From assembly GCF_028993575.1 (NCBI RefSeq), contig NZ_CP118615.1, positions 1,302,001 through 1,366,000 of the forward strand: 64,000 nt of DNA, in the 5' to 3' direction. The notes beneath the pieces were generated by a model. That model did no database searches. It was not told the DNA's origin and saw nothing but the letters and a program-made list of their open reading frames with translations. Position numbers and translations under genes: made by a program. This DNA comes from Micromonospora cathayae (lineage in GTDB: Bacteria; Actinomycetota; Actinomycetes; Mycobacteriales; Micromonosporaceae). This document shows positions 5,059 through 29,020 of this stretch, in pieces. Each line of letters begins with the position of its first letter. Positions within the stretch are counted from its first letter, which is position 1.

Positions 5059-8022
5059 TCAGTCCTCGTTGGTACGGGGCGGTGGTGAGATCAGGTCACC
5101 GCCACCGCCACCGCCCGGTCCACCCGGGTTGGTGGGGGTGGTGGGCTCGCCGCCACCCGGTCCACCCGGTCCACCCGGGCCGCCAGGCCCCTGGTTGCCG
5201 CCGCCGTTGTCCGGGCAGAGGATGCCCAGCGGGTCGAGGCAGGGCGGGTTCGGGTTGGGGTTCTGGCCCGGCGGCGGGTTGGTCGGCGCGGGCGGCGGCG
5301 GCTCCTCGCCGTTGCCCTTGTTCGGGTCGCCAATACCGCTGATCTCGGGCAGGTCCACCTTGTCCATGCCCTTGTGTGCGGCCTCCATGTACTTTTCCCA
5401 GACGTCGGCGGGCATGTTGCCACCACCGATGTCATTGCCGTTCTTGTCGAGGATCTTCGGCTTCTTCGGATCCTCGCTGCCGATCCAGACGGCGGTGGCG
5501 AGCTGGGGGGTGTACCCGACCATCCAGGCGTCTGCGTTCTGCTCAGTGTTCGAGTACTGCCAGGTACCGGTCTTGCCGGCGGCCTGTCGGCCACCCTCCA
5601 ACGAGTTGTCGATGTTGCCGGGGATCTTCTTCAGCACGGCGGTCACCTCACGGGCGATGTCCCGGTTGATCCGCTGCTGTGACTTGATCTTAGGCCCGGT
5701 GCCGGGGACGGTCTCCCATTTCCCGGTCTCCTGGTCCTGCTGCTCGATCTTGGTCACGAAGTGGGCCTTGTTGAACTTGCCCTCGTTGGCGAGCGTGGCG
5801 AGCCCGTTGGCGTGGTCGAGCACGGTGATCGGGAACTGCCCGTACGCCATGACCTCGTCGAACTTCGACGGCGCGAGCTGGTCCGGCTCGGCCTTCATCA
5901 GGTCGTACGCCTTGACCGGCTCCCGGGTCCACATCGTGGTGACACCGGCCTGGCGGGCCATGTTGAGCACGGTGGCCGGCTTGATCTCCTTGGCCACGTG
6001 GTAGAAGGGCACGTTGTACGACTCGACGGTCGACTCCTCCAGCGTGCACCACTTGTTGCACTTCTTGCTGACGTCGCGGCCGGCGTTGCCGATCTCGTCG
6101 GCGAAGCCCTTCGGCTTGAACGGGGTGGCGTCCCAGCGCGATTTCACCGAGATGCCCTCGTTGATCGCCGCCGCCAGGGTGTAGACCTTGAACGTCGAGC
6201 CCGGCGGGTGGCCGCCGGAGAGTTCACCGTTGCTGTCGATGTTGAAGCCGGCGTAGTCGATGTCCGCTCCGCTCTCGCCGCCGTAGTAGGCACGTACCGC
6301 GCCGGTCTTCGGGTCGATCGAGACGACCGCCGCCATCAGGTTTGGCGGATGGCCGTAGAGCGGGGAGGACTTTACCTGCTGCCGGGCGGCGTTCTCGGCG
6401 GCCTTCTGCATCTTCGGGTCGATGGTGGTGGTGATCTTGTAACCACCGGTGCGCAGCGCGTCGACGCAACTGATCTTCCCCTCCGCGCCGGAGTCGGAGC
6501 ACATGCCCCACTGCTCCATCTCCTTGCGGACGTAGTTGATCACGTTGCCCTTGGGGGAGGCGACCCCGAAGCCGTTCGCCGTCTCCTTGTTCATGTCCGG
6601 CATCGCGGCCGGCCGCTCCTCGGGCTTGAGCCAGCCCTCCTCGACCATGCCGCCGATCACGTAGTTCCACCGGTCCTGGGCGGCCTTGGTGGCCTCCGGG
6701 CCCTTGGTCGGGTCGTACCCGGGGTGGGTGGCGCTGGCCTGCGGCTGCTTGATCACCCCGGCCAGCGCGGCGGCCTCCGCCACGTTCAGCTTGCTCGCGG
6801 ACTTCCCGAAGTACGCCTTCGCCGCCGCCTCGACCCCGTACGCGCCCCGTCCGAAGTAGATGGTGTTCAGGTAGTGCTGCATGATCTCGTCCTTGGAGAA
6901 CTGATCATTCAGCTTGGAGGCGAGGATCGCCTCTTTCACCTTCCGGGCGTACGTGTCGTCCTTCAGGCTCTCGTAGGCGTTCCGCGCGTATTGCTGGGTG
7001 ATGGTCGAGGCACCCTGCTTGGTGCCGCCGGTGAAGTTGTTCCAGGCGGCCCGGGCGATGCCCTTGTAGTCGACCCCGGAGTGCTCGTAGAAGTTCCGGT
7101 CCTCGGCGGCGGCCACCGCGTACTGGACGTGCTTCGGGAGGTCCTTGATCGCGATGAACTCACGGTTCTCACTGCCGAGCTTGGCGACGAGTCCCTTGCC
7201 GTCCTTCATGTAGACGGTCGTCGCGAACGGCAGCGGCAGGCTGTTCGGCAGCACGACCTGCGCCGAGTAGTACGTGAAGCCGACCACGCCGATGCCGGCG
7301 AGCATGATGAAGACCGCGAAGCTCGCGATGAGCATGTTGATCCGCTTGCGCTTCTTCGCCCGCTTGAGCGCCTCCGGGTCCCGGTTGGCGCGGCTGCGCC
7401 GGCCGGGGCCGGTCGGCCCGCCCGGCCCGGCACCGTCCAGGCCGGAGCCACCGGGCGGGGCGACGCTGGCCCGGGCGACGGTGGCCCGACCGGCCATGCC
7501 GCCGACCGACGCGGAACCCACGGACGCCGAACCCACCGAGGCGGCGCCGACGGACGCCGAGCCGACCGAGGCCCGGCCGGCGGGGCTCACCGGGGAGGCG
7601 GAACCGACGGACGCCCGGCCGCTGCCCACCGAGGCCCGACCGGCCGGGGCGTGCCCACCCGCCGGGGAGACCGGGACCGAGGCCCGGCCGGCGCCGGCCC
7701 GGCCGACCGAGGCCGAGCCGGCCGGCGGCGGGCTGATCGGCGGGGCCATGCCGTGCCGGGGTACGGACGCCGAGCCGGCCACCGACGCGCGCCCGCTGGA
7801 CCCGGTGGCCCGGGGTGTCGGGGCGGCCCGGCCGGTGGGTGTCGCCCCGTCGGGTCCGGAGGACCACGGTGTCGTCGGGTCGGGCCCGGAAGACCAACCG
7901 GTTCCCCGGGCGTCCGCGCCGGGACGGCGGTACGCGTCGTCCGCCTCCGGCCCGGGGTCACCGTTCTGACCCGGAATCCGGGCCCGCCCACGCGGGGAAC
8001 TGGGATCGCCGTACGAGTTCAT
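5059..8022 (-). CDS. bifunctional class A penicillin-binding protein (transglycosylase/transpeptidase)
   Basis: 987 residues. Residues 1-225 are a cytoplasmic, disordered tract containing many Gly-Arg/Ser-Ala-Ser-Val repeats, ending in a basic RAKKRKR patch. One membrane segment spans about 229-253. A GT51 glycosyltransferase domain follows, with EDRNF (Glu307) and GASTITQQ (337-344). The penicillin-binding transpeptidase carries STFK (609-612), SYN (668-670) and KTGT (817-820). The last 90 residues are Gly/Pro-rich and extracytoplasmic. All catalytic motifs are intact, so it should polymerise lipid II and cross-link peptidoglycan. Typical class A PBPs are 650-850 residues; the excess here is the two low-complexity ends. 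Confidence 0.93.
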   Translation of the reverse strand: MNSYGDPSSPRGRARIPGQNGDPGPEADDAYRRPGADARGTGWSSGPDPTTPWSSGPDGATPTGRAAPTPRATGSSGRASVAGSASVPRHGMAPPISPPPAGSASVGRAGAGRASVPVSPAGGHAPAGRASVGSGRASVGSASPVSPAGRASVGSASVGAASVGSASVGSASVGGMAGRATVARASVAPPGGSGLDGAGPGGPTGPGRRSRANRDPEALKRAKKRKRINMLIASFAVFIMLAGIGVVGFTYYSAQVVLPNSLPLPFATTVYMKDGKGLVAKLGSENREFIAIKDLPKHVQYAVAAAEDRNFYEHSGVDYKGIARAAWNNFTGGTKQGASTITQQYARNAYESLKDDTYARKVKEAILASKLNDQFSKDEIMQHYLNTIYFGRGAYGVEAAAKAYFGKSASKLNVAEAAALAGVIKQPQASATHPGYDPTKGPEATKAAQDRWNYVIGGMVEEGWLKPEERPAAMPDMNKETANGFGVASPKGNVINYVRKEMEQWGMCSDSGAEGKISCVDALRTGGYKITTTIDPKMQKAAENAARQQVKSSPLYGHPPNLMAAVVSIDPKTGAVRAYYGGESGADIDYAGFNIDSNGELSGGHPPGSTFKVYTLAAAINEGISVKSRWDATPFKPKGFADEIGNAGRDVSKKCNKWCTLEESTVESYNVPFYHVAKEIKPATVLNMARQAGVTTMWTREPVKAYDLMKAEPDQLAPSKFDEVMAYGQFPITVLDHANGLATLANEGKFNKAHFVTKIEQQDQETGKWETVPGTGPKIKSQQRINRDIAREVTAVLKKIPGNIDNSLEGGRQAAGKTGTWQYSNTEQNADAWMVGYTPQLATAVWIGSEDPKKPKILDKNGNDIGGGNMPADVWEKYMEAAHKGMDKVDLPEISGIGDPNKGNGEEPPPPAPTNPPPGQNPNPNPPCLDPLGILCPDNGGGNQGPGGPGGPGGPGGGEPTTPTNPGGPGGGGGGDLISPPPRTNED
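7462..7791 (-). repeat. Ala-Ser-Val coding minisatellite in the PBP N-terminus
   Basis: About 330 bp encode residues 78-187 of the PBP as a degenerate array of G-[R/S/A]-A-S-V words; the densest part is five tandem 15-bp units (GSASVG, GAASVG and so on). Such in-frame repeats can expand or contract by slippage without breaking the frame. Confidence 0.85.
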
Positions 8023-8216
8023 TCCTCACACCCTGCCGGTCGCGGTGGGACGCGGGTGCGCCACCACCGGTTTGCCGTGAGCTGTGCCACGCGGTGCCTC
8101 CGCCCGAGCCGTCGGGTCGGAGCCGCTGAATTCTGCGCGAACCGGAGCAATCCGGCCGAAAGACTGTCGATCGCCCCGTCCGTCGTCGTTGTCGGCGGCT
8201 GCCGGAGGCGTTGGAC

Positions 8217-18385: not shown

Positions 18386-18898
18386 GTGGCCACCGGAACG
18401 CTGATCTTCCTCATCATCGGTGCGGCCGGCGTCGCGGTCCTCGCGGTCGCCCTGCTCGGCGGGGAGTTGCTGCACCTCGGCCAGCCGGGCGTCGACGGGC
18501 CGGTCTCGGTGGAGGCGGTCGCCGGGTTCGCCGGGGCGTTCGGCTTCGGTGGGGCGATCGCCAACGAGTTGCTCGGTGCCGGTACCCCCGCCCTGGTCGC
18601 CGGGGCGGTCACCGCGGGCGCGGGCGCGGCCGTCCCCACCGCCTGGTTCGCGGCCCGGCTGAGCCGAGCCGCCCGGAACATGCGTACCGACCCGACGCCC
18701 ACCCGGGACCACCTGGTCGGCGCGCTGGGCCTGGTGGTCACCCCGATCCCCGCCACCGGTTACGGCGAGGTGCGGGTACGCCTCGCCGGGCAGCCGGTGA
18801 AGCTCAACGCCCGCGCCGACCGCCCGCTGCCGGTCGGCACCCAGGTCTTCGTGGTGGAAGCACTCAGCGAGACCAGCGTGCACGTCGAGACGTACTGA
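18386..18898 (+). CDS. NfeD-like membrane protein
   Basis: 170 residues from GTG 18386. Hydrophobic segments at about 5-25, 45-65 and 70-92 are followed by a C-terminal beta-barrel (OB-type) domain (LVGALGLVVTPIPATGYGEVRVRLAGQPVKLNARAD, PVGTQVFVVEAL), the architecture of NfeD proteins that partner flotillins in membrane microdomains. Flotillin follows after 28 bp, a classic NfeD-flotillin pairing. Divergent from the secreted protein gene. Confidence 0.82.
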   Translation: MATGTLIFLIIGAAGVAVLAVALLGGELLHLGQPGVDGPVSVEAVAGFAGAFGFGGAIANELLGAGTPALVAGAVTAGAGAAVPTAWFAARLSRAARNMRTDPTPTRDHLVGALGLVVTPIPATGYGEVRVRLAGQPVKLNARADRPLPVGTQVFVVEALSETSVHVETY

Positions 18899-18926
18899 AC
18901 CTTCCCGTAGAGAGACGGACCCCCAC

Positions 18927-20438
18927 ATGCCCCTCCTCATCGCCATCGGCGGCGCGGTACTGCTCCTTCTCGTCCTGGTCATGTTCGTGCTGTCCAGGAT
19001 CAAGGTGGCCGGGCCGAACGAGGCGTTCATCGTCACCGGCCGCAAGGGCCGCACCACCCAGACCGCCGACGGCGGCCGGTCCACCGACAACTCCGGCCAG
19101 AAGGTCGTCCTGGGCGCGTCGGTGTTCGTGCTGCCGGTGGTGCAGAAGCTCCAGTCGCTGGACCTGTCCAGCCGACGGATCGACGTCGGCATCAAGGGCG
19201 CGGTCAGCAAGCAGGGCATCCGCGCCGACCTGCACGGCGTGGCCATCGTCAAGGTGGGCGGCACCGAGGACGCCATCCGGGCCGCCGCACAACGCTTCCT
19301 GCACCAGCAGGACGAGATCGAGGACTTCACCCGGGAGGTGCTGGCCGGCGCGCTGCGGTCGATCGTCGGCCGGCTCACCGTCGAGGAGGTGATCCGGGAC
19401 CGGGCGGCCTTCGCCAGCGCGGTCGCCGAGGAGGCCGAGCACTCGATGACCAACCAGGGTCTGGTGCTGGACACCTTCCAGCTCCAGGACATCCTCGCCG
19501 AGGGTTCGTACCTCCAGGACCTGGGTCGGCCGGAGGCGGCCCGGGTACTCAAGGACGCGGCCATCGCCGAGGCGCGGGCCCGGCAGCAGGCCGAGCAGGA
19601 GCGGCTGCTCGCCGAGGAGGCCATCGCCGAAGCCAACCGGAACCTGTCGCTGAAGCAGGCCGCCATCCAGGCCGAGATCGACGCGGCGAAGGCGAAGTCG
19701 GCGGCGGCCGGTCCGCTCGCACAGGCCGAACGGGACCAGGCGATCCTCTCCGAGCAGCAGAAGGTGGCCGAGCGCAACGCCGAACTGAAGCAGCGGCAGC
19801 TGGACACCGAGGTCCGCAAGCCGGCCGACGCGGCCCGGTACAAGGTCGAGCAGGAGGCCGAGGCGGCCCGCAACGCGGCCGTGCTGGAAGCGGACGCGCG
19901 CCGGCAGGCCACCATCGCCGCCGCCCAGGCCGCCGCCGAGCAGGCCCGGCTGACCGGTGAGGGCGAGCGGGCCCGCCGGGCGGCGCTGGCCGAGGCGAAC
20001 GCGATCGAGGGCGCCAAGGAGGGTGAGGCCGAGCAGCGGCGGCGGTCGGCGATCGCCGAGGCGGTCGAGCGGGAGGGCCGGGCGGAGGCCGAGGCGATCC
20101 TGGCCAAGGGGCAGGCCGAGGCGGAGGCGATGGCCCGCAAGGCCGAGGCGTTCGCCGCGTACGGTGAGGCCGCCGTGCTGGACCTGCTGGTCCGGGTGCT
20201 CCCGCAGGTCGTCGAGGCGGCCAGCGCCCCGATCGGTGCGATCGACAAGATGACCGTGATCTCCACCGACGGCGCGTCGTCGCTGACGAAGTCGGTCGCC
20301 GGGAACGTGGCCCAGGGCCTCCAATTGGGTTCCGACCTGACCGGCATCGACCTGGCGGGTCTGCTGGCGAAGCTCGGCTCGGCGTCGTCCGTGAACGGCA
20401 CGGCTCCCGTCGAGTCCACGGCGGTCGAGACGCGGTAA
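18927..20438 (+). CDS. flotillin family SPFH protein
   Basis: 503 residues. An N-terminal hydrophobic hairpin (PLLIAIGGAVLLLLVLVMFVLSRI) anchors the protein. A band-7/SPFH domain at about 30-200 follows (IKVAGPNEAFIVTGRKGR, GASVFVLPVVQKLQSLDLSSRRIDV, FLHQQDEIEDFTREVLAGALRSIVGRLTVEEVIRDR). The flotillin part, about 200-430, is a long Ala/Glu-rich coiled coil (EAEAARNAAVLEADARRQATIAAAQ). Such proteins form membrane scaffolds. A ribosome site (AGAGAGACGG) precedes the ATG. It is convergent with the signalling cluster at 20556-26709. Confidence 0.92.
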   Translation: MPLLIAIGGAVLLLLVLVMFVLSRIKVAGPNEAFIVTGRKGRTTQTADGGRSTDNSGQKVVLGASVFVLPVVQKLQSLDLSSRRIDVGIKGAVSKQGIRADLHGVAIVKVGGTEDAIRAAAQRFLHQQDEIEDFTREVLAGALRSIVGRLTVEEVIRDRAAFASAVAEEAEHSMTNQGLVLDTFQLQDILAEGSYLQDLGRPEAARVLKDAAIAEARARQQAEQERLLAEEAIAEANRNLSLKQAAIQAEIDAAKAKSAAAGPLAQAERDQAILSEQQKVAERNAELKQRQLDTEVRKPADAARYKVEQEAEAARNAAVLEADARRQATIAAAQAAAEQARLTGEGERARRAALAEANAIEGAKEGEAEQRRRSAIAEAVEREGRAEAEAILAKGQAEAEAMARKAEAFAAYGEAAVLDLLVRVLPQVVEAASAPIGAIDKMTVISTDGASSLTKSVAGNVAQGLQLGSDLTGIDLAGLLAKLGSASSVNGTAPVESTAVETR

Positions 20439-20555: not shown

Positions 20556-21968
20556 TCACAGTACCGAGCGTCCGTTGAGCCCGCCGGTACCGTTCGCTCC
20601 GGCGGGCGACCGGCTCGGCGCCGTCCCGGAGCGACTCTCCGGACCCGGATCACGGAGCAGCTTGGCGGCGAGGTCGTTCACGGCCACGTCACGTCGGGCC
20701 CGCAGCGACACCTGGTGTTCCTGGAGTCTCAGCTCGTGCTCCGCGCGCCGCATCCGCGCCTGGTTGTCGATGTCGTCCCGGTCGGCGGAGTACCGGTCGG
20801 CGATCCGACGCTCGTCGGTGCTGGTCTCGTCGACGAAGATCCGCTCGGTGCTCTCACTGCGCACGCGGTACAGGCGGTCGTATCCGCTGGTGCCGCCGAA
20901 GAACTTCGCCATCATCGGCAGGCAGTCGACCGCGATGAAGAAGAGCCGGATCGCCCAGGTGCTCGCGAACAGCGCCGGATTGCTGCCGGTCAGCTCGTGC
21001 AGGGCGGCCAGCCGTTCGAGGAAACCGATCGGTCCTTGATGACTGCGTTCCTCCTCGACCCGTTCGGCGATCTTCCGGTCCCGGTCCTGTTCGAAGTTCG
21101 CCACCGCGGTAGAGAGCTGTTGTTCCAGGACGACGATCCGTCCCCGTAGCTCGGAGTGCTTCCGGCCGTTCTCCTCGATGGGGTGGCTGCGGGCGAAGGC
21201 CTCGGCTTCGGCGGTGCGCTGACGGCAGCGCGGGCCGTTCCCCGACCGCCCGGTGAAGCCGGTACCGCCGCCGCCCGTGCACTCCCGGGCGGCTTTCTCC
21301 CGAAGTCCGTTGAGCGCGGTGGTGTCCTTGTCGACGGTCTTCTGGAGCGCCGCCGCCTCGGTACGCGTACCGGCCAGTTCCCGCCGGATCGCGGCCGGGG
21401 TGGTCTCGAACGACAGCAGGTACTGCCGACAGTCCTGGCTGGCCGAGGTGTCCTCGGCGGTGGCGGTCTTCTCCCCGTTGCAGGACAGCAGACTGGTCCG
21501 CAACGTGTCGAGCTGCCCGCTGCGTTCCTCCCTGATGTGCTGTTCGATGGCGGTCTCGAAGATCCGCATGACCAGCGGCTCGGCGATCACGACGCCGAAC
21601 ATCACCGCCAGGGCCAGCCGGGCCAGCAGGGGACCGACCCGGCGGACGCCACCCGCCATGCTGGTGACCAGTTGCCGGTCGAAGTTGATGATGAACAGGA
21701 ACCAGAGCAGGGCGGGGAACAGGTGCCAGGCGGACACCCGGCCGAGAACCTGGTTGACGGCGACCCACATGGAGAACGCGGCGAGCAACGCGGTACCGAG
21801 GATCACCCCGCCCAGCGAGGTGTGCCGGGCCCGCTCGTGCCACACCCTGCGGAGCAGCGTCTCGTCCACCCCGGCCACTCCGCGGAGCAGTCGCGGCAGG
21901 TCGACGCCACGACGCCACGTCCCGCTCCGCTCGTCCCGCCGGGCGGGCTCCGGTCCACGATCAGTCAA
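20556..21968 (-). CDS. DUF4407 family membrane protein
   Basis: 470 residues. Three membrane segments at about 50-70, 80-97 and 111-135 precede a long periplasmic or coiled-coil region (about 140-320, with RRELAGTRTEAAALQKTVDKDTTALN and SELRGRIVVLEQQLSTAVANFEQDRDRKIAERVEEE). A fourth helix lies at 332-354 (FASTWAIRLFFIAVDCLPMMAKFF), followed by a charged tail. NFDRQLVTSM and EPLVMRIFE are characteristic of DUF4407, a family of unknown function. It is the last gene of the leftward cluster and overlaps the upstream gene by 8 bp, so it is probably translationally coupled. Confidence 0.82.
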   Translation of the reverse strand: MTDRGPEPARRDERSGTWRRGVDLPRLLRGVAGVDETLLRRVWHERARHTSLGGVILGTALLAAFSMWVAVNQVLGRVSAWHLFPALLWFLFIINFDRQLVTSMAGGVRRVGPLLARLALAVMFGVVIAEPLVMRIFETAIEQHIREERSGQLDTLRTSLLSCNGEKTATAEDTSASQDCRQYLLSFETTPAAIRRELAGTRTEAAALQKTVDKDTTALNGLREKAARECTGGGGTGFTGRSGNGPRCRQRTAEAEAFARSHPIEENGRKHSELRGRIVVLEQQLSTAVANFEQDRDRKIAERVEEERSHQGPIGFLERLAALHELTGSNPALFASTWAIRLFFIAVDCLPMMAKFFGGTSGYDRLYRVRSESTERIFVDETSTDERRIADRYSADRDDIDNQARMRRAEHELRLQEHQVSLRARRDVAVNDLAAKLLRDPGPESRSGTAPSRSPAGANGTGGLNGRSVL

Positions 21969-22944
21969 TGTCGGCCTCGTTCGGGATGAAGTCCGGCCGG
22001 GTGTCGTCGCCGTTCCTGCGGGCTCCGGGCCCGTGCGGAAGTGCGGTCGACGCCTCGACGGTCAGGGCCGGGTTGTTCTCGGTCGCGGAGCTGCGGCCGA
22101 CCAGCTCTTCCACCAGTCGGACCGGATCGAAGTCGGCCCGGTCCAGGAAGCCGCGGGCGACCATGTCCTGCACCACGGCTCCGACCAGTCGTCGGCGTTC
22201 CGCCTCGGTGTCGTGCATCCGCTCGGCGACCTGGCCCACGTTGATCTCGTTGCGGCTGATCCCCAGGGCGTCGGCGTAGGTGGGCCCTGCGGACAGCAGC
22301 GTGGCGTACCGGTCGATCTCCTCGTTCTGCCAGGCCACGTCGAGTCGGCCGACCTCCTGGTCCCACTTCTTGTCCCGGACCCGGCGACGCTGGGCGCGCA
22401 GGTCGGCCGAGGGGTGCACCACCACGGAGCTGAGTGCGACGTCCATGCCCGGCACCACCGGCGGCACGAGGTGACAGTAGGCGGTGATTCGGGCGTCCAC
22501 CTGGCGCCGGACGTCGTTGATGTCCTCGATCCGGAACTGGAGGCCCAGGTTCTTCAGTTCGCGGTCCTGCCACAGATAGGTGGTCAGCAGGGTGACGAGG
22601 TCGTTCAGTCCGGCCTCGGCGACCGCCTCCGGGGTGAGGACCTGACACCGGAAGTTGACGACCACCGTGAACTCGTCCGCCGCGCTGGCCGACGGGATGG
22701 CCAGGACGCACTGCAGGTTGGCCGCGCGTCGTTGCACCACGCTGACCGCGACCGCGTCGACCACGGTCTCGTCGCTGTGGTCGACGTGGCGGTCACCGTA
22801 GAGTCGGTGTTGTCCGTTGACCTTGAACACGTAGACCGCGCCGGGCGGCAACGAGGGCAGGTCGGTGACGAGTCGCCGGCGGGTGCCGATCAGGCGACGC
22901 AGCACCGGCGGCAGGTTCTTCTCCGTCAGTACGGGATAGGGCAT
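21961..22944 (-). CDS. SPFH/band-7-like cytosolic protein in the signalling cluster
   Basis: 327 residues with no membrane segment. Residues about 65-200 read like an SPFH domain: alternating strands (VVDAVAVSVV, EFTVVVNFRCQVLTPEAV), a helix (LNDLVTLLTTYLWQDREL) and then an Arg/Lys/Glu-rich exit (VVVHPSADLRAQRRRVRDKKWDQEVGR). I infer the fold by eye; no family name is certain. The C-terminal third is hydrophilic. It lies between the NTPase (36-bp gap) and DUF4407 (8-bp overlap) and may scaffold the complex at the membrane. Confidence 0.6.
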   Translation of the reverse strand: MPYPVLTEKNLPPVLRRLIGTRRRLVTDLPSLPPGAVYVFKVNGQHRLYGDRHVDHSDETVVDAVAVSVVQRRAANLQCVLAIPSASAADEFTVVVNFRCQVLTPEAVAEAGLNDLVTLLTTYLWQDRELKNLGLQFRIEDINDVRRQVDARITAYCHLVPPVVPGMDVALSSVVVHPSADLRAQRRRVRDKKWDQEVGRLDVAWQNEEIDRYATLLSAGPTYADALGISRNEINVGQVAERMHDTEAERRRLVGAVVQDMVARGFLDRADFDPVRLVEELVGRSSATENNPALTVEASTALPHGPGARRNGDDTRPDFIPNEADID

Positions 22945-22980
22945 GGGGTCCTTCTCTCAAGGGTGTCGCGGGACGGCCCG

Positions 22981-25107
22981 TCAACGCAGGACGGTGCGGG
23001 GCGTCCCGCCGGCGAGCGCCGCGAGCAACGCGGCGATCACCGGTCGGGTCTGCACGGGGTCACCCGGGGCACGCAGTGCCTGCGCCAGTTCCCGGCACAG
23101 ACGCACGCACTCCGCCTCGGTCAGTTGCCGACGTAGCACGGCACCCAGCTCCCGTACCGCGTACTCGGCTTCCTCGTGTCCGGCAAGGCTTTCCAGGGTC
23201 AGCTTCAACGCGTCGATGGCGCCCGACCGGTGGGGCAGGCTGCGCAGCGCCTCGGCCCAGAGGATGCCGAGCGGCTCGGTCGCCGCCGGCTGCTGCCGCA
23301 GCAAATGGGCCACCACCGGACGGGTGTGTTCGAGATGCTCCACCGAGAGCACCTCGATGACCGCTTCGGTGGCGAACCCCGCTATCCGGGGCTCCGGGGC
23401 CTGAGCGAGGGTGCGGCGTAGTCGGTGCATCAGGCGCTTGAGCAGTCGCGTCGCCGCCTGCGGGTCGGCCGCCGCAGTACAGAACAGCAGGCCCAGCGAG
23501 CGGACGGCCAGCTCACGGATCGGTTTGCCCCGGGTGGACAGGTGCCAGAGCCAGGGCTCCGCCTCGGTCGGGTAGCGGATACCGAGTGGCCCGCCGAGCG
23601 CGGTGGCGGCGGTCACCGCCGGGCCCTGCCCGGCACCGTCGGCCCAGCTCAGCGCCACCTGTAGGGCGGTCGGTGCCAACGCGTCGTCGGCGGCCATGCA
23701 GGACAGGACCGACGTCGCGGTGAACCGTTCGCCCGCCCGGCCCTTCGCCCAGCCGACGAGCATGTCCCGCACCAGCGGGGCGGCGTCGCGGTTCCGGGCC
23801 AGCAGGGCCATCCCGAGGCCCAGTTGCAGGCGTACCTCGGTGTCGCCGGACGCGGCCAGTTCGTCGATCCAGATCCGTAGCGGACGCCAGAGCCGGTAGC
23901 CGCACTCGTAGAGTTCGTGCAGCACGTGCTCGCGCATGCCGTCGGCGACGAACCCGACCCGCCGTTCGGCCCAACCAAAGTCGTCGACGCGGTCGGCGCT
24001 GGTCCGGCGGGTCACCAGCCCACCGTCCCGGTAGAGGTTGCGCCGTTCCTGCAACGGCCCGGCGGTGGTCGCCCCCGGTGGGGCCGGAGATGCCACGCCG
24101 GCGGAGAGAGCGAGTTCCTCCGCGCGGTCGATCTCACGCAGCCGGGCGTACACCTCCTCGAACCTGCGCTCGGGAAGTTCGTGGGCGAAGGCCAGCGCCG
24201 CGACCCGTAGCAGTTCCTGCCAGGAGTTGTCTTCCGTGAACCACTTCGCCACCCGGTTCCGCTCGGTGTGCTCCGCTACGGCCAGCGCGATCTCCACGCC
24301 CTGGGGCAGCCGATCCAGCAGGCCGACCACCTCGCCGGGCAGGCGGAGTTCGGCGACCCGCTGGCGGACCCGGTCGACCGCTGCGGCGTCGATCGGTCGA
24401 CCGAGCCGCAGGTAGGTGTCGAGGATCGCCCCCGCCTTCGGCGGGCTCCACGGGACGGCTCGTTGTTCCAGGTCACCCCGGCACAGGGTCCGCTGGTTCA
24501 CGGTGCACACCAGGAAGGCACCCCGGTCGGTCAGCCGGTCACCGAGCCGGGCCGCGTCGAACGCCTGCACCGCAGCGTCCCGCTTCTCGCCGAGCCAGTC
24601 GAGGACCAGGTAGCCGCGCCCCCGGACGAAGTCGTACTCGCTGAGTTGGGCCAGGGTCATCGCCGGGGAAAGACCGGTGATCCGGCCCTCGGCACCGATC
24701 CGTTCGCGCAGCAGGGCCAGGGCACCGGTACGGCGGCCGACCCCCGGGTCCCCCGTGAGGAAGACGAGTCGCTCCCGGTCGAGCAGTCCGGCCGCCTGGG
24801 GGTACCCGTCCGGCGGTGCGAAGTACCGCAGCGCGTGGTCGACCTCGGCCTCCGGGATCCGGCCCACCGAGACGTGGCTCACCGCCGCGCCACCGGAGAT
24901 GCCGAAGGTGGCCTGGCCGGCGTGCACCTGCCCGTAGAACTGGTTGATGACCCGCGCTTCGCGCCGTTGCTCCTGAGCGCCGGGGGTGTCCGGGTCGGGC
25001 TGTGGGGCGGACGACGCTCCAGCGGCGTCGGCCTGCTCGCCCGGCTCCGGTGGCTCGGGTGTTGTCGGATCGGTACGCGGTGCGTCCGTGGCTTCCGGAT
25101 CAGCCAC
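22981..25107 (-). CDS. STAND-like NTPase with helical-repeat C-terminus
   Basis: 708 residues from GTG 25107. The N-terminal 50 residues are Pro/Glu-rich. Residues 54-73 form a motif (INQFYGQVHAGQATFGISGG) shared with the C-terminus of the upstream protein. A P-loop follows at 119-127 (GDPGVGRRT); the usual Lys is Arg. A Walker B-like strand (RGYLVLDWLGE) lies near 165-173, then a winged-helix-like part. The C-terminal 350 residues are helical and HEAT-like (EVRLQLGLGMALLARN, WLWHLSTRGKPIRELAVRSLGLL). This is the architecture of STAND/NLR-like signalling ATPases in bacterial conflict and signalling systems. It overlaps the cyclase-like gene by 8 bp. Confidence 0.7.
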   Translation of the reverse strand: MADPEATDAPRTDPTTPEPPEPGEQADAAGASSAPQPDPDTPGAQEQRREARVINQFYGQVHAGQATFGISGGAAVSHVSVGRIPEAEVDHALRYFAPPDGYPQAAGLLDRERLVFLTGDPGVGRRTGALALLRERIGAEGRITGLSPAMTLAQLSEYDFVRGRGYLVLDWLGEKRDAAVQAFDAARLGDRLTDRGAFLVCTVNQRTLCRGDLEQRAVPWSPPKAGAILDTYLRLGRPIDAAAVDRVRQRVAELRLPGEVVGLLDRLPQGVEIALAVAEHTERNRVAKWFTEDNSWQELLRVAALAFAHELPERRFEEVYARLREIDRAEELALSAGVASPAPPGATTAGPLQERRNLYRDGGLVTRRTSADRVDDFGWAERRVGFVADGMREHVLHELYECGYRLWRPLRIWIDELAASGDTEVRLQLGLGMALLARNRDAAPLVRDMLVGWAKGRAGERFTATSVLSCMAADDALAPTALQVALSWADGAGQGPAVTAATALGGPLGIRYPTEAEPWLWHLSTRGKPIRELAVRSLGLLFCTAAADPQAATRLLKRLMHRLRRTLAQAPEPRIAGFATEAVIEVLSVEHLEHTRPVVAHLLRQQPAATEPLGILWAEALRSLPHRSGAIDALKLTLESLAGHEEAEYAVRELGAVLRRQLTEAECVRLCRELAQALRAPGDPVQTRPVIAALLAALAGGTPRTVLR
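24889..24948 (-). other. N-terminal shared motif of the STAND protein
   Basis: Encodes residues 54-73 of the NTPase. Twelve of 20 positions are identical to residues 240-259 of the cyclase-like protein. The conserved frame is N-x-F-x-G-x-V-x-A-x-x-A-T-F-G-x-S-G-G. The layout is one motif copy at an effector C-terminus and one at the N-terminus of the adjacent NLR-like protein, as described for bacterial amyloid signalling sequences. Confidence 0.6.
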
Positions 25108-25888
25108 GGCTTCCGCCGGAGAAGCCGAAGGTGGCGTGGCTGGCGTCCACCGCGCCCTGGAAGACGTTCATCACGTCGGCGCGCTGCTGCGGCTGTGGTG
25201 CACCGGGGGTACCCGCCGGGTCGCGGCCGGCGGCCGGGTCGTCAGGCCGGGGCTCACCTGGCTGGTCGGGGGTGCTCCCGGCTCCGGTCGGCTGATGCTG
25301 CGGGCGGCCGGCGCCGGGGACCCGGATCCACGCCGTCGCCCGGTACTCCTTCTCCACCACCTCGACCTCGTGGAAGTCGCTTTCGACGTAGGTGGTGTGG
25401 TCACCGAGCACGAGCGCCCGGAAGACGTCGTCGGAGAGGATGAGTGCCAGGTTCGCCTGCGGGGCAGCCGCCAGGGCCTGCCGCAGCGGACCCGAGTTCA
25501 GCAGCCGGCTCACCGTGACCACGCCCCGCCCCGGGTATCCGTTCGCCCCCGGATAGGCCACTCCCTGGTCGACGGCGATCCGCAGTCGCACCCGGTCCGT
25601 GTCGGTCCGGTACCGGTTGACCCGGTTCAGTTCCGCGTCGATGTGCCGGACGTAGTCGTCGACGACCCTGGGCTCGCCGCGCCCGAGTGGAACGAGCGCG
25701 AGTTCACCGTCACCGCTGGCCTGGGTGGTCCAGGACCCGCGGTCCAGACCTGCTGCCCCCGCTGCCCTGGTGAAGATCTGGACCAACCGTTGTTGCACCT
25801 CAGCCTGTGCTCGGTCGTCCCGCCTCCCGTAACCTTCCACGTCCACGGAAACACACAGTCTTCGATCGAAGAGTTCTGTAACAGTCAA
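25100..25888 (-). CDS. class III nucleotide cyclase-like protein with C-terminal signalling motif
   Basis: 262 residues from TTG 25888, chosen because AGGGAGAGG lies 8 nt upstream; another in-frame TTG at 25909 has no ribosome site. Residues 10-155 follow the class III cyclase pattern: VSVDVEGYG (metal Asp16), ASGDGEL (metal Asp60), RVRLRIAVDQG, GRGVVTVSRLL (Arg128) and ILSDDVFRALV. The base-selecting Lys is Gln56, and the transition-state Asn is Val124. A Pro-rich linker leads to the 20-residue motif repeated in the STAND protein. It may make a non-canonical cyclic nucleotide or act as a non-catalytic sensor. Confidence 0.65.
   Translation of the reverse strand: MTVTELFDRRLCVSVDVEGYGRRDDRAQAEVQQRLVQIFTRAAGAAGLDRGSWTTQASGDGELALVPLGRGEPRVVDDYVRHIDAELNRVNRYRTDTDRVRLRIAVDQGVAYPGANGYPGRGVVTVSRLLNSGPLRQALAAAPQANLALILSDDVFRALVLGDHTTYVESDFHEVEVVEKEYRATAWIRVPGAGRPQHQPTGAGSTPDQPGEPRPDDPAAGRDPAGTPGAPQPQQRADVMNVFQGAVDASHATFGFSGGSRG
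25112..25171 (-). other. C-terminal shared motif of the cyclase-like protein
   Basis: Encodes residues 240-259 (MNVFQGAVDASHATFGFSGG), three residues before the C-terminus. It is the counterpart of the STAND N-terminal motif at 24889-24948. Confidence 0.6.
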
Positions 25889-25896
25889 CGAAGGGG

Positions 25897-25905
25897 CCTC
25901 TCCCT
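25897..25905 (-). promoter_or_regulatory. ribosome-binding site that fixes the TTG start of the cyclase-like gene
   Basis: AGGGAGAGG on the minus strand, 8 nt before TTG 25888. It is the only good Shine-Dalgarno sequence in this stretch and decides the start in the absence of ATG or GTG. Confidence 0.6.
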
Positions 25906-25957
25906 GCAAGGAACGTCGCCGCCACCGGACACTGTGCGATAGACGACGGACGAGAAT

Positions 25958-25973
25958 CCCGTACTAGTACGGG
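25958..25973. promoter_or_regulatory. 16-bp perfect palindrome over the CRP-type gene stop codon
   Basis: CCCGTACTAGTACGGG is self-complementary. It covers the TAG stop of the CRP-type gene and lies 70 bp upstream of the cyclase-like start. The lack of a loop argues against a terminator and favours a protein-binding site or a processing point. It does not match the canonical CRP site (TGTGA...TCACA). Confidence 0.5.
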
Positions 25974-26668
25974 GTCTGATCTGTCAGTTGACTGACCTGG
26001 CGCAGACCCGCCAGGTCCCGGACCACGAGCCGCCGATAACCGCGGGCGATCAACCCTTGTTGATCAAGAATGGAAAGCGCCTTCTCCGCAGCAGGGAGGG
26101 AGACCCCCGCCATCGACGCCAACTCGGCCTGGCGAAGCGGAATACCAAGATCGACGCCTTCGCTCGTGGCAGCCCCGTACATCTCCACCAGACGCGCAAT
26201 GATGCGACCGACCCGGGTGGGCGCGTCATAGGCCCGCAGGTCGACGCGTTGCTGATTCGCCCACCGCAGTCGACGACTGATGGTCCGCCGGATCTCGACG
26301 TCGATCTCCGGGTGGAGCCTGCCGAGGTGACGGAGCTCTTCCGGCCCGATCCGCCGGGCCGACACAGCAGCACAGGTGACCACGGTGGCCGAGCGGGGTT
26401 CGCCGTCCACTGCGGCCAGCTCGCCGACCACCTCGCCCCCGACCCGTACGGCAAGCAACGCCTCGTAGCCTTCCGCCGTCGACAGGGCGACCTTGACGGA
26501 ACCGCTGAGGAGCACCAGAACGTGACGGGAATCCTCGCCCTGACGGAAGACCACCCGTCCACCCGGAACGTCGATCCGGGCGCCCGCCCGGCACACGACC
26601 TGCCGGGCGGGACCGCTGAGTCGACCGAGCAGGGTCTGGGCGGGCCATTCGGACGCCTCGCGGGTCAT
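25964..26668 (-). CDS. CRP/FNR family regulator with intact cyclic-nucleotide pocket
   Basis: 234 residues from ATG 26668. An N-terminal cNMP-binding domain (residues about 15-115) contains the phosphate-binding cassette GELAAVDGEPRSATV, with the Glu83 and Arg92-Ser-Ala positions that contact cAMP in CRP. A dimer helix (RRTISRRLRWANQQRVDL) and a winged helix at about 170-215 (IPLRQAELASMAGVSLPAAEKALSILDQQGLI) follow. A GTG at 26692 is an alternative start. The ATG overlaps the stop of a 14-residue leader. The cyclase-like gene follows 75 bp downstream in the same direction, linking a nucleotide receptor to a possible nucleotide producer. Confidence 0.85.
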   Translation of the reverse strand: MTREASEWPAQTLLGRLSGPARQVVCRAGARIDVPGGRVVFRQGEDSRHVLVLLSGSVKVALSTAEGYEALLAVRVGGEVVGELAAVDGEPRSATVVTCAAVSARRIGPEELRHLGRLHPEIDVEIRRTISRRLRWANQQRVDLRAYDAPTRVGRIIARLVEMYGAATSEGVDLGIPLRQAELASMAGVSLPAAEKALSILDQQGLIARGYRRLVVRDLAGLRQVSQLTDQTPY

Positions 26669-26709
26669 CCTTTCCGAACCACCCGGTCGCACCGACGGAT
26701 GCGGACCAT
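26665..26709 (-). CDS. possible 14-residue leader peptide before the CRP-type gene
   Basis: The ATG at 26709 has AAGGAGG upstream (GGAGG about 11 nt away). It encodes MVRIRRCDRVVRKG and stops at a TGA that overlaps the CRP ATG (ATGA). The CRP ATG itself has GGAAAGG with no spacing, so re-initiation from this leader could drive its translation. No protein family; judged only by its signals. Confidence 0.4.
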   Translation of the reverse strand: MVRIRRCDRVVRKG

Positions 26710-27559: not shown

Positions 27560-29020
27560 TCAGTCGACCAGGCCCTCGGCACGCGCCCAGCGCAGCAGTT
27601 CCGCCTCGGCGGCGTCCCGGTCCAGCGGGCCACGCTCCAGGCGGACGTCCTTGAGGTGCTTCCAGGCCCGCCCGACGATCGGCCCCGGCGGTACGCCGAG
27701 CAGCTCCATGATCGCGTTGCCGTCCAGGTCGGGGCGTACCCGGGCCAGGTCCTCCTCGGCGGCGATCCGGGCGATCCGCTCCTCCAGCGCGTCGTAGTCG
27801 GCCGCGAGGTTGGCGGCCTTGCGCCGGTTGCGGGTGGTGCAGTCCGAGCGGGTCAGCTTGTGCAGCCGGGACAGCAGGTCACCGGCGTCGGTGACGTACC
27901 GGCGCACCGCCGAGTCGGTCCACTCGCCCCGGCCGTACCCGTAGAACCGCAGGTGCAGGTTGACCAGCTTGGTCACCTGGGCGGTGACGTCCTTCGGGTA
28001 CCGCATGGCCTTCATCCGGGCCTTGGTCAGCCGCGCGCCGACCACCTCGTGGTGGTGGAAGCTGACCCGGCCGTCCGCGCCGACCGCCTTGGTCGCCGGC
28101 TTGCCCACGTCGTGCATCAGCGCGGCCATCCGCAGGACGAAGTCACAGCCGTCGTCCTCCAGGGCGACCGCGTTGCTGACCACGGTCAGCGTGTGCTCGT
28201 AGACGTCCTTGTGCTGGGCGTGCTCGTCAATCTCCAGCTTGAGCCCGGTCAGCTCGGGCAGGAACCGCTCGGCCAGCCCGGTGTCGACCAGCAGCCGCAG
28301 CCCGGTCACCGGGTCCGCGCCGCAGAGCAGCTTGGTGAACTCGTCCCGGATCCGCTCGGCGGTGATCCGGTCCAGGTCAGCGGCCATCCGGACCATGGCC
28401 GCCCGCACGTCCGGGTGGACGGCGAAGCGGAGCTGCGCGGCGAACCGGGCCGCGCGCAGCATCCGCAGCGGGTCGTCACCAAAGGACTCCCGGGGCGTCC
28501 CCGGGGTACGGATCACCTTCGCGGCCAGGTCGTCCAGGCCGCCGTACGGGTCGGTGAACCGGTGGTCGGGCAGGCTGACCGCCATCGCGTTGACGGTGAA
28601 GTCGCGCCGCTTCAGGTCGTCGGCCAGGTTCGTCCCGTACGCCACCACCGGGTTGCGGCTGACCTGGTCGTACGACTCGGCGCGGAAGGTGGTGATCTCC
28701 AGCCGCAGGCCGCCGCGCTGCGCGCCGATGGTGCCGAACTCCCGGCCGGTCTCCCAGATCGACTCGGCCCAGCCCTTGAGCACCTTCAGCGTCTGGTCCG
28801 GGTGGGCGTCGGTGCAGAAGTCGAGGTCCTCGCCGAGCCGGCCGAGCAGGGCGTCCCGTACCGAGCCACCCACCAGGTGCAGTTCGTGCCCGGCGCGGGC
28901 GAACCGGCGGCCCAGCTCGTCGGCGACCGGGGAGACACGGAGCAGTTCGGCGACGGCGTTGCGCTGGGCTGCGGTGAGCTGGCGGCGGTCGACGGCGTGG
29001 GGTACGGAGGCTTCGGACAT
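27560..29020 (-). CDS. pcnA: CCA tRNA nucleotidyltransferase (class II, with HD domain)
   Basis: 486 residues. The nucleotidyltransferase head has GGSVRDALLGRLGEDLDFCTDA with the two catalytic Asp (DLD). The RRDFTVNAMA motif, the GDDPLRMLRAARFAAQ segment and a C-terminal HD domain (LMHDVGKP, FHHHEVVGAR) follow. It adds or repairs the 3' CCA end of tRNA. Gene order is conserved in actinobacteria, where it is divergent from murJ. In mycobacteria a NUDIX gene and a large membrane-protein gene lie between pcnA and murJ; here only about 126 bp separate them. ATG 29020 is the natural start. Confidence 0.94.
   Translation of the reverse strand: MSEASVPHAVDRRQLTAAQRNAVAELLRVSPVADELGRRFARAGHELHLVGGSVRDALLGRLGEDLDFCTDAHPDQTLKVLKGWAESIWETGREFGTIGAQRGGLRLEITTFRAESYDQVSRNPVVAYGTNLADDLKRRDFTVNAMAVSLPDHRFTDPYGGLDDLAAKVIRTPGTPRESFGDDPLRMLRAARFAAQLRFAVHPDVRAAMVRMAADLDRITAERIRDEFTKLLCGADPVTGLRLLVDTGLAERFLPELTGLKLEIDEHAQHKDVYEHTLTVVSNAVALEDDGCDFVLRMAALMHDVGKPATKAVGADGRVSFHHHEVVGARLTKARMKAMRYPKDVTAQVTKLVNLHLRFYGYGRGEWTDSAVRRYVTDAGDLLSRLHKLTRSDCTTRNRRKAANLAADYDALEERIARIAAEEDLARVRPDLDGNAIMELLGVPPGPIVGRAWKHLKDVRLERGPLDRDAAEAELLRWARAEGLVD

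What the first reader, a model, noticed from the sequence alone, without database searches (positions are those of the whole stretch)
20556..26709. Candidate undescribed signalling system: CRP, cyclase-like, STAND, SPFH-like and DUF4407 genes in one leftward cluster
Seen: five same-strand genes with two 8-bp overlaps, in the order CRP-type receptor, class III cyclase-like protein, STAND-like NTPase, SPFH-like protein and DUF4407 membrane protein. Known: class III cyclases and STAND/NLR-like ATPases recur in bacterial immunity and conflict loci, and CRP proteins read cyclic nucleotides. Inference: the locus may sense a stress, make or sense a nucleotide signal, and act at the membrane through SPFH/DUF4407. 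I know no described system with exactly this set.
Basis: partly seen in the sequence, partly recalled or inferred. Interest (0 to 1): 0.85.

Follow-up and report, generated by a model that had tools for sequence, protein, structure and literature searches.

The report
Receptor-linked cyclase signalling gene cassette
Five neighbouring genes in an actinomycete form a conserved unit in which an immune-receptor-like protein and a nucleotide-making enzyme carry the same short tag, so the receptor probably clusters and switches on the enzyme, whose product is then read by the gene regulator encoded next door.

Summary
Confirmed: five leftward genes with two 8-bp overlaps. Profiles or predicted folds support CRP, class III cyclase, SPFH and DUF4407; the 'STAND' protein is a divergent nSTAND3-like core with a degenerate P-loop. 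The complete set is in 11 of 67 neighbourhoods examined, this one included.

(1) The cyclase tail and the STAND N-terminus share a ~21-residue motif (13 of 21 identical). Across loci the motif changes type jointly in effector and receptor (0 of 20,000 permutations; own receptor best within genome for 16 of 18), the layout of bacterial NLR amyloid (BASS) signalosomes. (2) The effector is exchangeable: TIR (2), SARP/BTAD (2) or an unknown protein (1) replaces the cyclase in 5 of 45 STAND loci. CRP is linked in 37 of 40 cyclase loci and 0 of 5 others.

Best reading: receptor assembly templates cyclase clustering, a cyclic nucleotide is made, CRP changes transcription, SPFH/DUF4407 act at the membrane. 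Linkage and motif matching are shown; amyloid, catalysis, ligand and phenotype are inferred. Related BASS and cyclase/EAD systems are published; this combination was not found in eight paper searches.

The parts
25964..26692 (-). CRP-family transcription factor (cNMP-binding domain + HTH_Crp_2)
   Evidence: Pfam; a CRP lies within 3.5 kb in 37 of 40 cyclase-STAND loci
26381..26425 (-). phosphate-binding cassette of the CRP (GELAAVDGEPRSATV), Glu and Arg kept
   Evidence: place; Glu in 45 of 46 and Arg in 44 of 46 CRPs
25100..25909 (-). class III nucleotidyl cyclase-like effector, disordered linker and C-terminal motif (start codon uncertain)
   Evidence: AlphaFold mean pLDDT 84.9 and fold matches; D23, D67, R135, K187
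25112..25174 (-). effector-side motif VMNVFQGAVDASHATFGFSGG near the cyclase C-terminus (aa 246-266)
22981..25107 (-). STAND-like (divergent nSTAND3) receptor with degenerate P-loop; C-terminal repeats possibly HEAT-like (weak HEAT matches in relatives only)
24889..24951 (-). receptor-side motif VINQFYGQVHAGQATFGISGG (aa 53-73)
   Evidence: found by a profile built from cyclase tails only, E 1.1e-7; the only place in the window below E 0.1 besides the cyclase itself
24709..24753 (-). degenerate Walker A (GDPGVGRRTGALALL)
21961..22944 (-). divergent SPFH-domain protein without predicted membrane helix
   Evidence: an SPFH match lies next to the STAND gene in 27 of 45 STAND loci
20556..21968 (-). 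DUF4407 membrane protein, four hydrophobic stretches
   Evidence: Pfam; hydropathy

Best explanation
A five-gene receptor signalosome with a second-messenger output. The STAND-like protein senses an unknown trigger, probably through its C-terminal half, and self-assembles. Its N-terminal ~21-residue motif then templates the same motif on the cyclase tail, in the manner of amyloid/RHIM-type (BASS) motifs. Class III cyclases form their active sites at a dimer interface (general knowledge), so clustering turns the enzyme on. It makes a cyclic nucleotide of unknown base; the positions that usually select a purine base are Gln and Gly. The CRP encoded first in the cluster binds this product and changes transcription. 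The SPFH and DUF4407 proteins form a membrane platform that anchors the receptor or carries out a membrane response. SHOWN: gene linkage, the shared motif, joint change of motif type in effector and receptor, effector exchange, conservation of catalytic and ligand-binding residues. INFERRED: amyloid templating, enzyme activity, CRP as reader, the role of SPFH/DUF4407, and defence as the purpose.
For: Motif: a profile built from cyclase tails alone finds the STAND N-terminus at E 1.1e-7 among 989 window peptides. Pairing: 32 representatives of 44 adjacent pairs, mean own score 53.9 against 28.7 for foreign receptors, 0 of 20,000 permutations; own receptor best within genome in 16 of 18. Two controls are flat: a cyclase-domain segment against the receptor head 13,882 of 20,000, the tail against the receptor C-terminus 2,829 of 20,000. 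Effector exchange: TIR in L077 and L080, SARP/BTAD in L118 and L120, with a tail resembling the neighbouring receptor's N-terminus. CRP within 3.5 kb in 37 of 40 cyclase loci and 0 of 5 others; in the 15 SPFH-found loci with a STAND gene 10 of 11 against 0 of 4, Fisher p 0.0037. Catalytic residues: D23 107 of 108, D67 and R135 120 of 120, K187 119 of 119 (the window's own database entry is among the 120). CRP pocket Glu 45 of 46, Arg 44 of 46.
Against: The STAND P-loop is degenerate, so ATP-driven assembly may not operate. The purine-binding Lys and Asp and the transition-state Asn of other class III cyclases (recalled) are Q63, G124 and V131, so the domain could be inactive or a binder. The own receptor is not in the top three for 8 of 32 pairs (L047, L066, L115 rank 28, 29, 14; L044, L045, L048, L118, L123 rank 4 to 6), and of the non-cyclase effectors L118 and L123 match only weakly. 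3 of 40 cyclase loci show no CRP: L115, L090, and L050 at a contig end. No shared CRP operator was found. In 18 of 40 cyclase-STAND loci no SPFH gene was detected beside the receptor, so it is not essential to the pair. The loci share ancestry, which the permutations do not fully remove. Amyloid formation is untested.
Confidence: 0.55

Rival explanations
1. The cyclase-like domain is a pseudo-enzyme or nucleotide binder. The shared motif only builds a scaffold, and the CRP is a simple regulator that responds to general cAMP.
For: Base-selecting and transition-state positions are replaced. Kaur et al. 2020 (PMC7159879, passages seen) report that several cNMP cyclase domains fused to the vWA component of related conflict systems are catalytically inactive.
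Against: Both metal Asp, the catalytic Arg and the Lys are almost invariant in 120 homologues, which a pure scaffold would not need. A CRP is linked to cyclase effectors (37 of 40) and to none of the 5 other effectors.
Confidence: 0.22
2. A conflict/defence operon of the EAD type (Kaur et al.): the motif is a short effector-associated adaptor acting by ordinary homotypic binding, not amyloid.
For: Published systems couple trypsins and, infrequently, cNMP cyclases to inactive STAND modules through the same adaptors (PMC8195603 section 6). The STAND here also looks inactive.
Against: No EAD or death-like Pfam domain was matched in the window proteins or in 10 receptors of relatives. The shared part is ~20 residues at the end of a low-confidence, Pro/Ala-rich linker.
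Confidence: 0.15
3. Five genes with separate duties placed together as an accessory island, with no common pathway.
For: The block lies at a variable place: the matched parts of flotillin and pcnA end about 110 bases apart in 3 of 7 relatives. DUF4407 is common elsewhere.
Against: The same five genes recur together in 11 of 67 neighbourhoods, with overlapping frames here and a motif shared by two of the proteins.
Confidence: 0.03
4. A Pycsar-type system: the cyclase makes cUMP or cCMP on infection and the CRP-like protein is the receptor.
For: Same logic of cyclase plus cNMP-binding protein; identical 44-residue spacing of the metal Asp (D23/D67 here; D102/D146 and D62/D106 in two PycC, PMC11224242, passages seen). 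The CRP matches five PADLOC Pycsar models over its cNMP-domain part.
Against: No PADLOC match for the cyclase at E 1. The cNMP-binding protein carries a DNA-binding domain, not TIR or TM, and a STAND receptor with the matched motif is added.
Confidence: 0.05

Closest known systems
BASS / NLR amyloid signalosomes of multicellular bacteria (original Dyrka et al. 2020 paper not read, recalled; PMC7889193 and PMC12261475, passages seen)
   Same: Adjacent effector and NLR-like genes; short motif at effector C-terminus and receptor N-terminus, many motif families; TIR among the effectors named
   Different: Effector here is a nucleotidyl cyclase with a linked CRP; SPFH and DUF4407 are added; receptor P-loop degenerate. 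The passages name Bell, CHAT and TIR effectors; the word 'cyclase' has 0 occurrences in the main texts of PMC7889193, PMC12261475 and PMC8086366
EAD/bDLD-coupled conflict systems with iSTAND2 and infrequent cNMP cyclase (Kaur et al. 2020, 2021; PMC7159879 and PMC8195603, passages and sections seen)
   Same: Cyclase and inactive STAND carry the same adaptor; occasional links to CRP-like genes; cyclase and Band-7 domains coupled in vWA proteins
   Different: No MoxR or vWA gene among the five genes; adaptor is a ~20-residue motif, not a recognised domain; CRP-cyclase-STAND-SPFH-DUF4407 set
Pycsar (PMC11224242, passages seen)
   Same: Class III-fold cyclase plus cNMP-binding protein; same spacing of metal Asp
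   Different: No PADLOC match for the cyclase; partner is a transcription factor; STAND receptor present
Fungal HET-S and mammalian RHIM signalosomes (PMC7889193, passages)
   Same: Receptor templates a short motif on the effector
   Different: Effector is a cyclase-like enzyme

Membership tests
BASS-type NLR amyloid signalosome | Effector gene next to NLR/STAND-like gene | tested here: met
BASS-type NLR amyloid signalosome | Same short motif at effector C-terminus and receptor N-terminus | tested here: met
   (weak or absent match in 8 of 32 pairs)
BASS-type NLR amyloid signalosome | Motif belongs to one of the ten published BASS families | not tested
   no BASS profiles at hand
BASS-type NLR amyloid signalosome | Motif forms amyloid and cross-seeds | not testable with these tools
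   needs bench work
BASS-type NLR amyloid signalosome | Receptor with intact NTPase P-loop | tested here: not met
   R for K in 45 of 56 proteins with a residue there, window included; so it is described as working like a BASS system, not filed as a member
EAD/bDLD-coupled conflict system | EAD or death-like adaptor domain in both proteins | tested here: inconclusive
   no such Pfam match, but the EAD profiles of the papers were not run
EAD/bDLD-coupled conflict system | MoxR and vWA genes in the operon | tested here: inconclusive
   none among the five genes; full neighbourhoods were not Pfam-scanned, and two relatives (L048, L054) have a downstream OmpA protein with a sub-threshold VWA match
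Pycsar | PycC-family cyclase | tested here: not met
   no PADLOC match for the cyclase at E 1; a remote relation is not excluded
Pycsar | cNMP-binding TIR or TM effector | tested here: not met
   the cNMP-binding protein is a CRP with HTH
class III nucleotidyl cyclase | Class III fold | tested here: met
class III nucleotidyl cyclase | Two metal Asp and catalytic Arg | tested here: met
   D23, D67, R135; roles by comparison with known cyclases, recalled
class III nucleotidyl cyclase | Cyclic nucleotide produced | not testable with these tools
   needs enzymology
SPFH proteins | SPFH fold | tested here: met

The most novel reading that the evidence does not exclude
Prion-like templating activates a second-messenger enzyme in bacteria. 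A receptor's short motif nucleates cyclase clusters, the cyclase makes a cyclic nucleotide with non-standard base choice, and a dedicated CRP turns an immune-type alarm into a transcriptional programme instead of immediate death. The output module is exchangeable, with TIR or a SARP activator in sister cassettes, so one receptor-membrane core serves different outputs.
Probability: 0.4. Interest if true: 0.9.

Novelty: new variant of a known kind. Interest (0 to 1): 0.8.

Why it matters
It joins two fields that are kept apart: amyloid/NLR signalosomes and cyclic-nucleotide immunity. If right, a bacterial cyclase is switched on by templated clustering, and its output is gene expression through a dedicated CRP. 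Natural exchange of cyclase plus CRP for TIR or for a SARP regulator gives ready-made swaps for experiments, and the different motif pairs within one genome look like insulated signalling wires. The system is compact (five genes, ~6 kb) and directly testable in laboratory Streptomyces.

Tried and rejected
CRP operator: a search for perfect inverted repeats (6-bp arms) upstream of the called CRP genes gave no shared site. Consensus promoter and terminator scans gave 0 and 2, no more than shuffles. PADLOC and NCBIfam named none of genes 2-5. The PDB sequence search gave weak Ma1120 cyclase hits for the cyclase profile (E 0.0036) and only chance-level hits for the SPFH profile; fold searches were needed. 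Pycsar was rejected as membership. The separate-genes reading is disfavoured by conservation. A class-wide cyclase survey never returned an answer, so no class-wide frequency of the cyclase is given. Of 43 other cyclase places, 37 were fetched with long flanks and 6 were not. Three of 18 SPFH-found loci (L085, L086, L121) show no STAND gene and are outside the 15 used for the Fisher test. Eight paper searches listed no paper that I recognised as describing this gene set; the library lacks most subscription papers, and the original BASS paper was not read.
Full report
OBSERVATION. The window lies in a 7.2-Mb genome held as one contig; the closest named homologues are Micromonospora proteins. 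Five leftward ORFs are present as described, with 8-bp overlaps at 25100-25107 and 21961-21968. Pfam identifies the CRP (cNMP_binding 3.6e-15, HTH_Crp_2 3.9e-13) and DUF4407 (5.7e-65); the third gene gets a weak nSTAND3 match (19 bits, cut-off 27.2) and genes 2 and 4 nothing at E 1. NCBIfam and PADLOC name none of genes 2-5. The start of the cyclase is uncertain; the database entry of the same gene has 228 residues and would lack D23.

CONSERVATION OF THE SET. I examined 67 neighbourhoods: this window; 14 from named genomes found with a cyclase alignment; 40 from relatives, of which 37 are cyclase places (6 of its 43 other places were not fetched) and 3 are SPFH or STAND places, fetched; and 12 found with an SPFH profile in 296 genomes of the class. 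Of the 67, 45 hold a STAND-like gene by an iterated profile; 40 of the 45 have the cyclase beside it, 27 an SPFH match, 14 also DUF4407; the complete five-gene set is in 11 (this window, L045, L046, L047, L063, L069, L112, L113, L114, L116, L117). Most neighbourhoods were found through the cyclase, so 40 of 45 is biased upward. In 101 relatives the SPFH protein is matched in 5 genomes, the STAND protein in 4 and the cyclase in 29: the cassette is sporadic, the cyclase family wider. DUF4407 is matched in 64 of 296 class genomes (55 over the cut-off); by coordinates it lies beside a hit of this SPFH family in 9 of them.

SHARED MOTIF. The cyclase tail ends in VMNVFQGAVDASHATFGFSGG plus three residues, and the STAND protein holds VINQFYGQVHAGQATFGISGG at residues 53-73: 13 of 21 identical. 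In the 120 homologues listed, the linker varies but many tails end in a motif of this type (40 aligned). A profile built from cyclase tails alone finds, among 989 six-frame peptides of the window, only the cyclase itself and the STAND N-terminus below E 0.1 (1.1e-7 for the latter, next 0.21). At other loci the motif is of different type yet again shared: VDVNGGVIGI with VDLNGGVIGI (L051, whose receptor is of another family), VVGGDEITY twice (L053), NVGQTAYGDHATLTN with NVGQTAYGDHAVLVN (L091), a 37-residue match in L095, GQNAxGxxAxAIG forms in L059-L062, L064, L065, L067, L068, L070 and L097. Test on 32 representatives of 44 adjacent pairs (receptors clustered at 50% identity): mean own score 53.9, foreign 28.7 (sd 7.4); 17 own receptors rank first and 24 in the top three; 0 of 20,000 permutations reach the observed sum. 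An earlier test with 30 representatives of 47 pairs (49 before two with gaps of 600 bases or more were dropped), clustered by the cyclase, agrees (14 of 30 first; 0 of 20,000), and two controls are flat (13,882 and 2,829 of 20,000). Within seven genomes with several cyclase loci, a list I drew up by hand, the own receptor scores best for 16 of 18 (the exceptions are L094 and a tie at L093); in this genome the two pairs score 88 and 103 with their own and 28 and 26 with the other receptor. Failures: L047, L066 and L115 show no convincing match, and L044, L045, L048, L118 and L123 rank fourth to sixth. Permutations do not remove shared ancestry; the within-genome comparison is the better guard.

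EFFECTOR EXCHANGE. In L077 (same genus) the cyclase place is taken by a TIR protein (Pfam 5e-11) whose tail VTNNFHKQVNADHAVFGV resembles the receptor's VTNNFYGGVATNGAVFGV, followed by SPFH and DUF4407. L080 has a second TIR (7.1e-9), L118 and L120 have BTAD/SARP-type regulators (9.9e-17, 3.3e-26), L123 a 116-residue protein without a significant family; tail matches are fair in L080 and L120 and weak in L118 and L123. None of these five has a CRP nearby (the missing upstream part of L080 was fetched as L124 and no called gene there matches), whereas 37 of 40 cyclase loci do (Fisher 4.6e-5; in the 15 SPFH-found loci with a STAND gene 10 of 11 against 0 of 4, p 0.0037). Five is a small number, but the pattern links the CRP to the cyclase and not to the receptor core. 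SARP replacement suggests that transcription is a natural output.

CATALYSIS AND LIGAND. In 120 homologues (the window's own entry among them) D23 is kept in 107 of the 108 that have a residue there, D67 and R135 in 120 of 120, K187 in 119 of 119. The positions of the usual purine-selecting Lys and Asp and of the catalytic Asn (recalled from known cyclases) are Q63, G124 and V131. The metal Asp spacing of 44 equals that of two PycC enzymes (PMC11224242). The CRP pocket Glu and Arg are kept in 45 and 44 of 46. I read this as an enzyme with altered base choice; an inactive binder is the main rival. The PycC paper also notes that cyclases isolated as monomers can become active as dimers.

RECEPTOR. 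The STAND-like protein has a Walker A with R in place of K in 45 of 56 proteins (window counted twice) and mostly no Ser/Thr after it. Ten receptors of relatives show weak HEAT, nSTAND3, NACHT/AAA or nSTAND5 matches, or none. It resembles the inactive STAND modules described by Kaur et al..

PLACE. The block lies between flotillin (18927-20438) and pcnA (27560-29020; the name pcnA is my reading of the translation, not a profile result). In 3 of 7 relatives with this flotillin the matched parts of the two genes end about 110 bases apart (L126, L128, L132); in the other four pcnA is not within the 1.5-kb flank held. The block, with a glyoxalase-like gene, is therefore probably an accessory insertion.

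COMPARISON. The layout is that of BASS signalosomes, but the degenerate P-loop and the untested motif family keep me from filing it as a member. Adaptors shared by a cNMP cyclase and an inactive STAND are published for EAD systems, and CRP links and cyclase/Band-7 couplings are mentioned there. New here, as far as the searched papers go, are a cyclase with matched short motifs, its CRP partner, the SPFH-DUF4407 module and the natural exchange of effectors. Hence: new variant of a known kind.

Noticed in passing
L058 (G000:C1:3893000-3909000), cyclase 7241-8089: The window's own genome has a second cyclase-receptor pair with a different motif type (VRVDGTNAMGHGATAVG with VRVDGANAMGHGSFAIG) and a divergently placed CRP; no SPFH or DUF4407 was detected beside it.
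   Followed up: partly
L118 10986-12125, L120 3871-5232: SARP/BTAD-type transcriptional activators sit in the effector place next to the receptor with a similar tail, a possible one-step version of cyclase plus CRP.
   Followed up: partly
L053 13877-15115, L123 6932-7888, L048 14062-15327, L054 14113-15375: Downstream genes of related cassettes include PP2C phosphatases (L053, L123) and OmpA proteins with sub-threshold VWA matches (L048, L054).
   Followed up: no
window 18386-20438: NfeD-like and flotillin genes lie convergent to the cassette; flotillin is another SPFH protein, 93-95% identical in 7 same-genus relatives, so probably not part of the system.
   Followed up: partly
L085 (G056:C83): A short SPFH match (with a stop inside) and a 973-residue ORF with a DUF4407 match remain without cyclase or STAND gene, possibly a remnant.
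   Followed up: no
class-wide: DUF4407 proteins are frequent in actinomycetes outside this cassette (64 of 296 genomes, up to six matched places in one).
   Followed up: no
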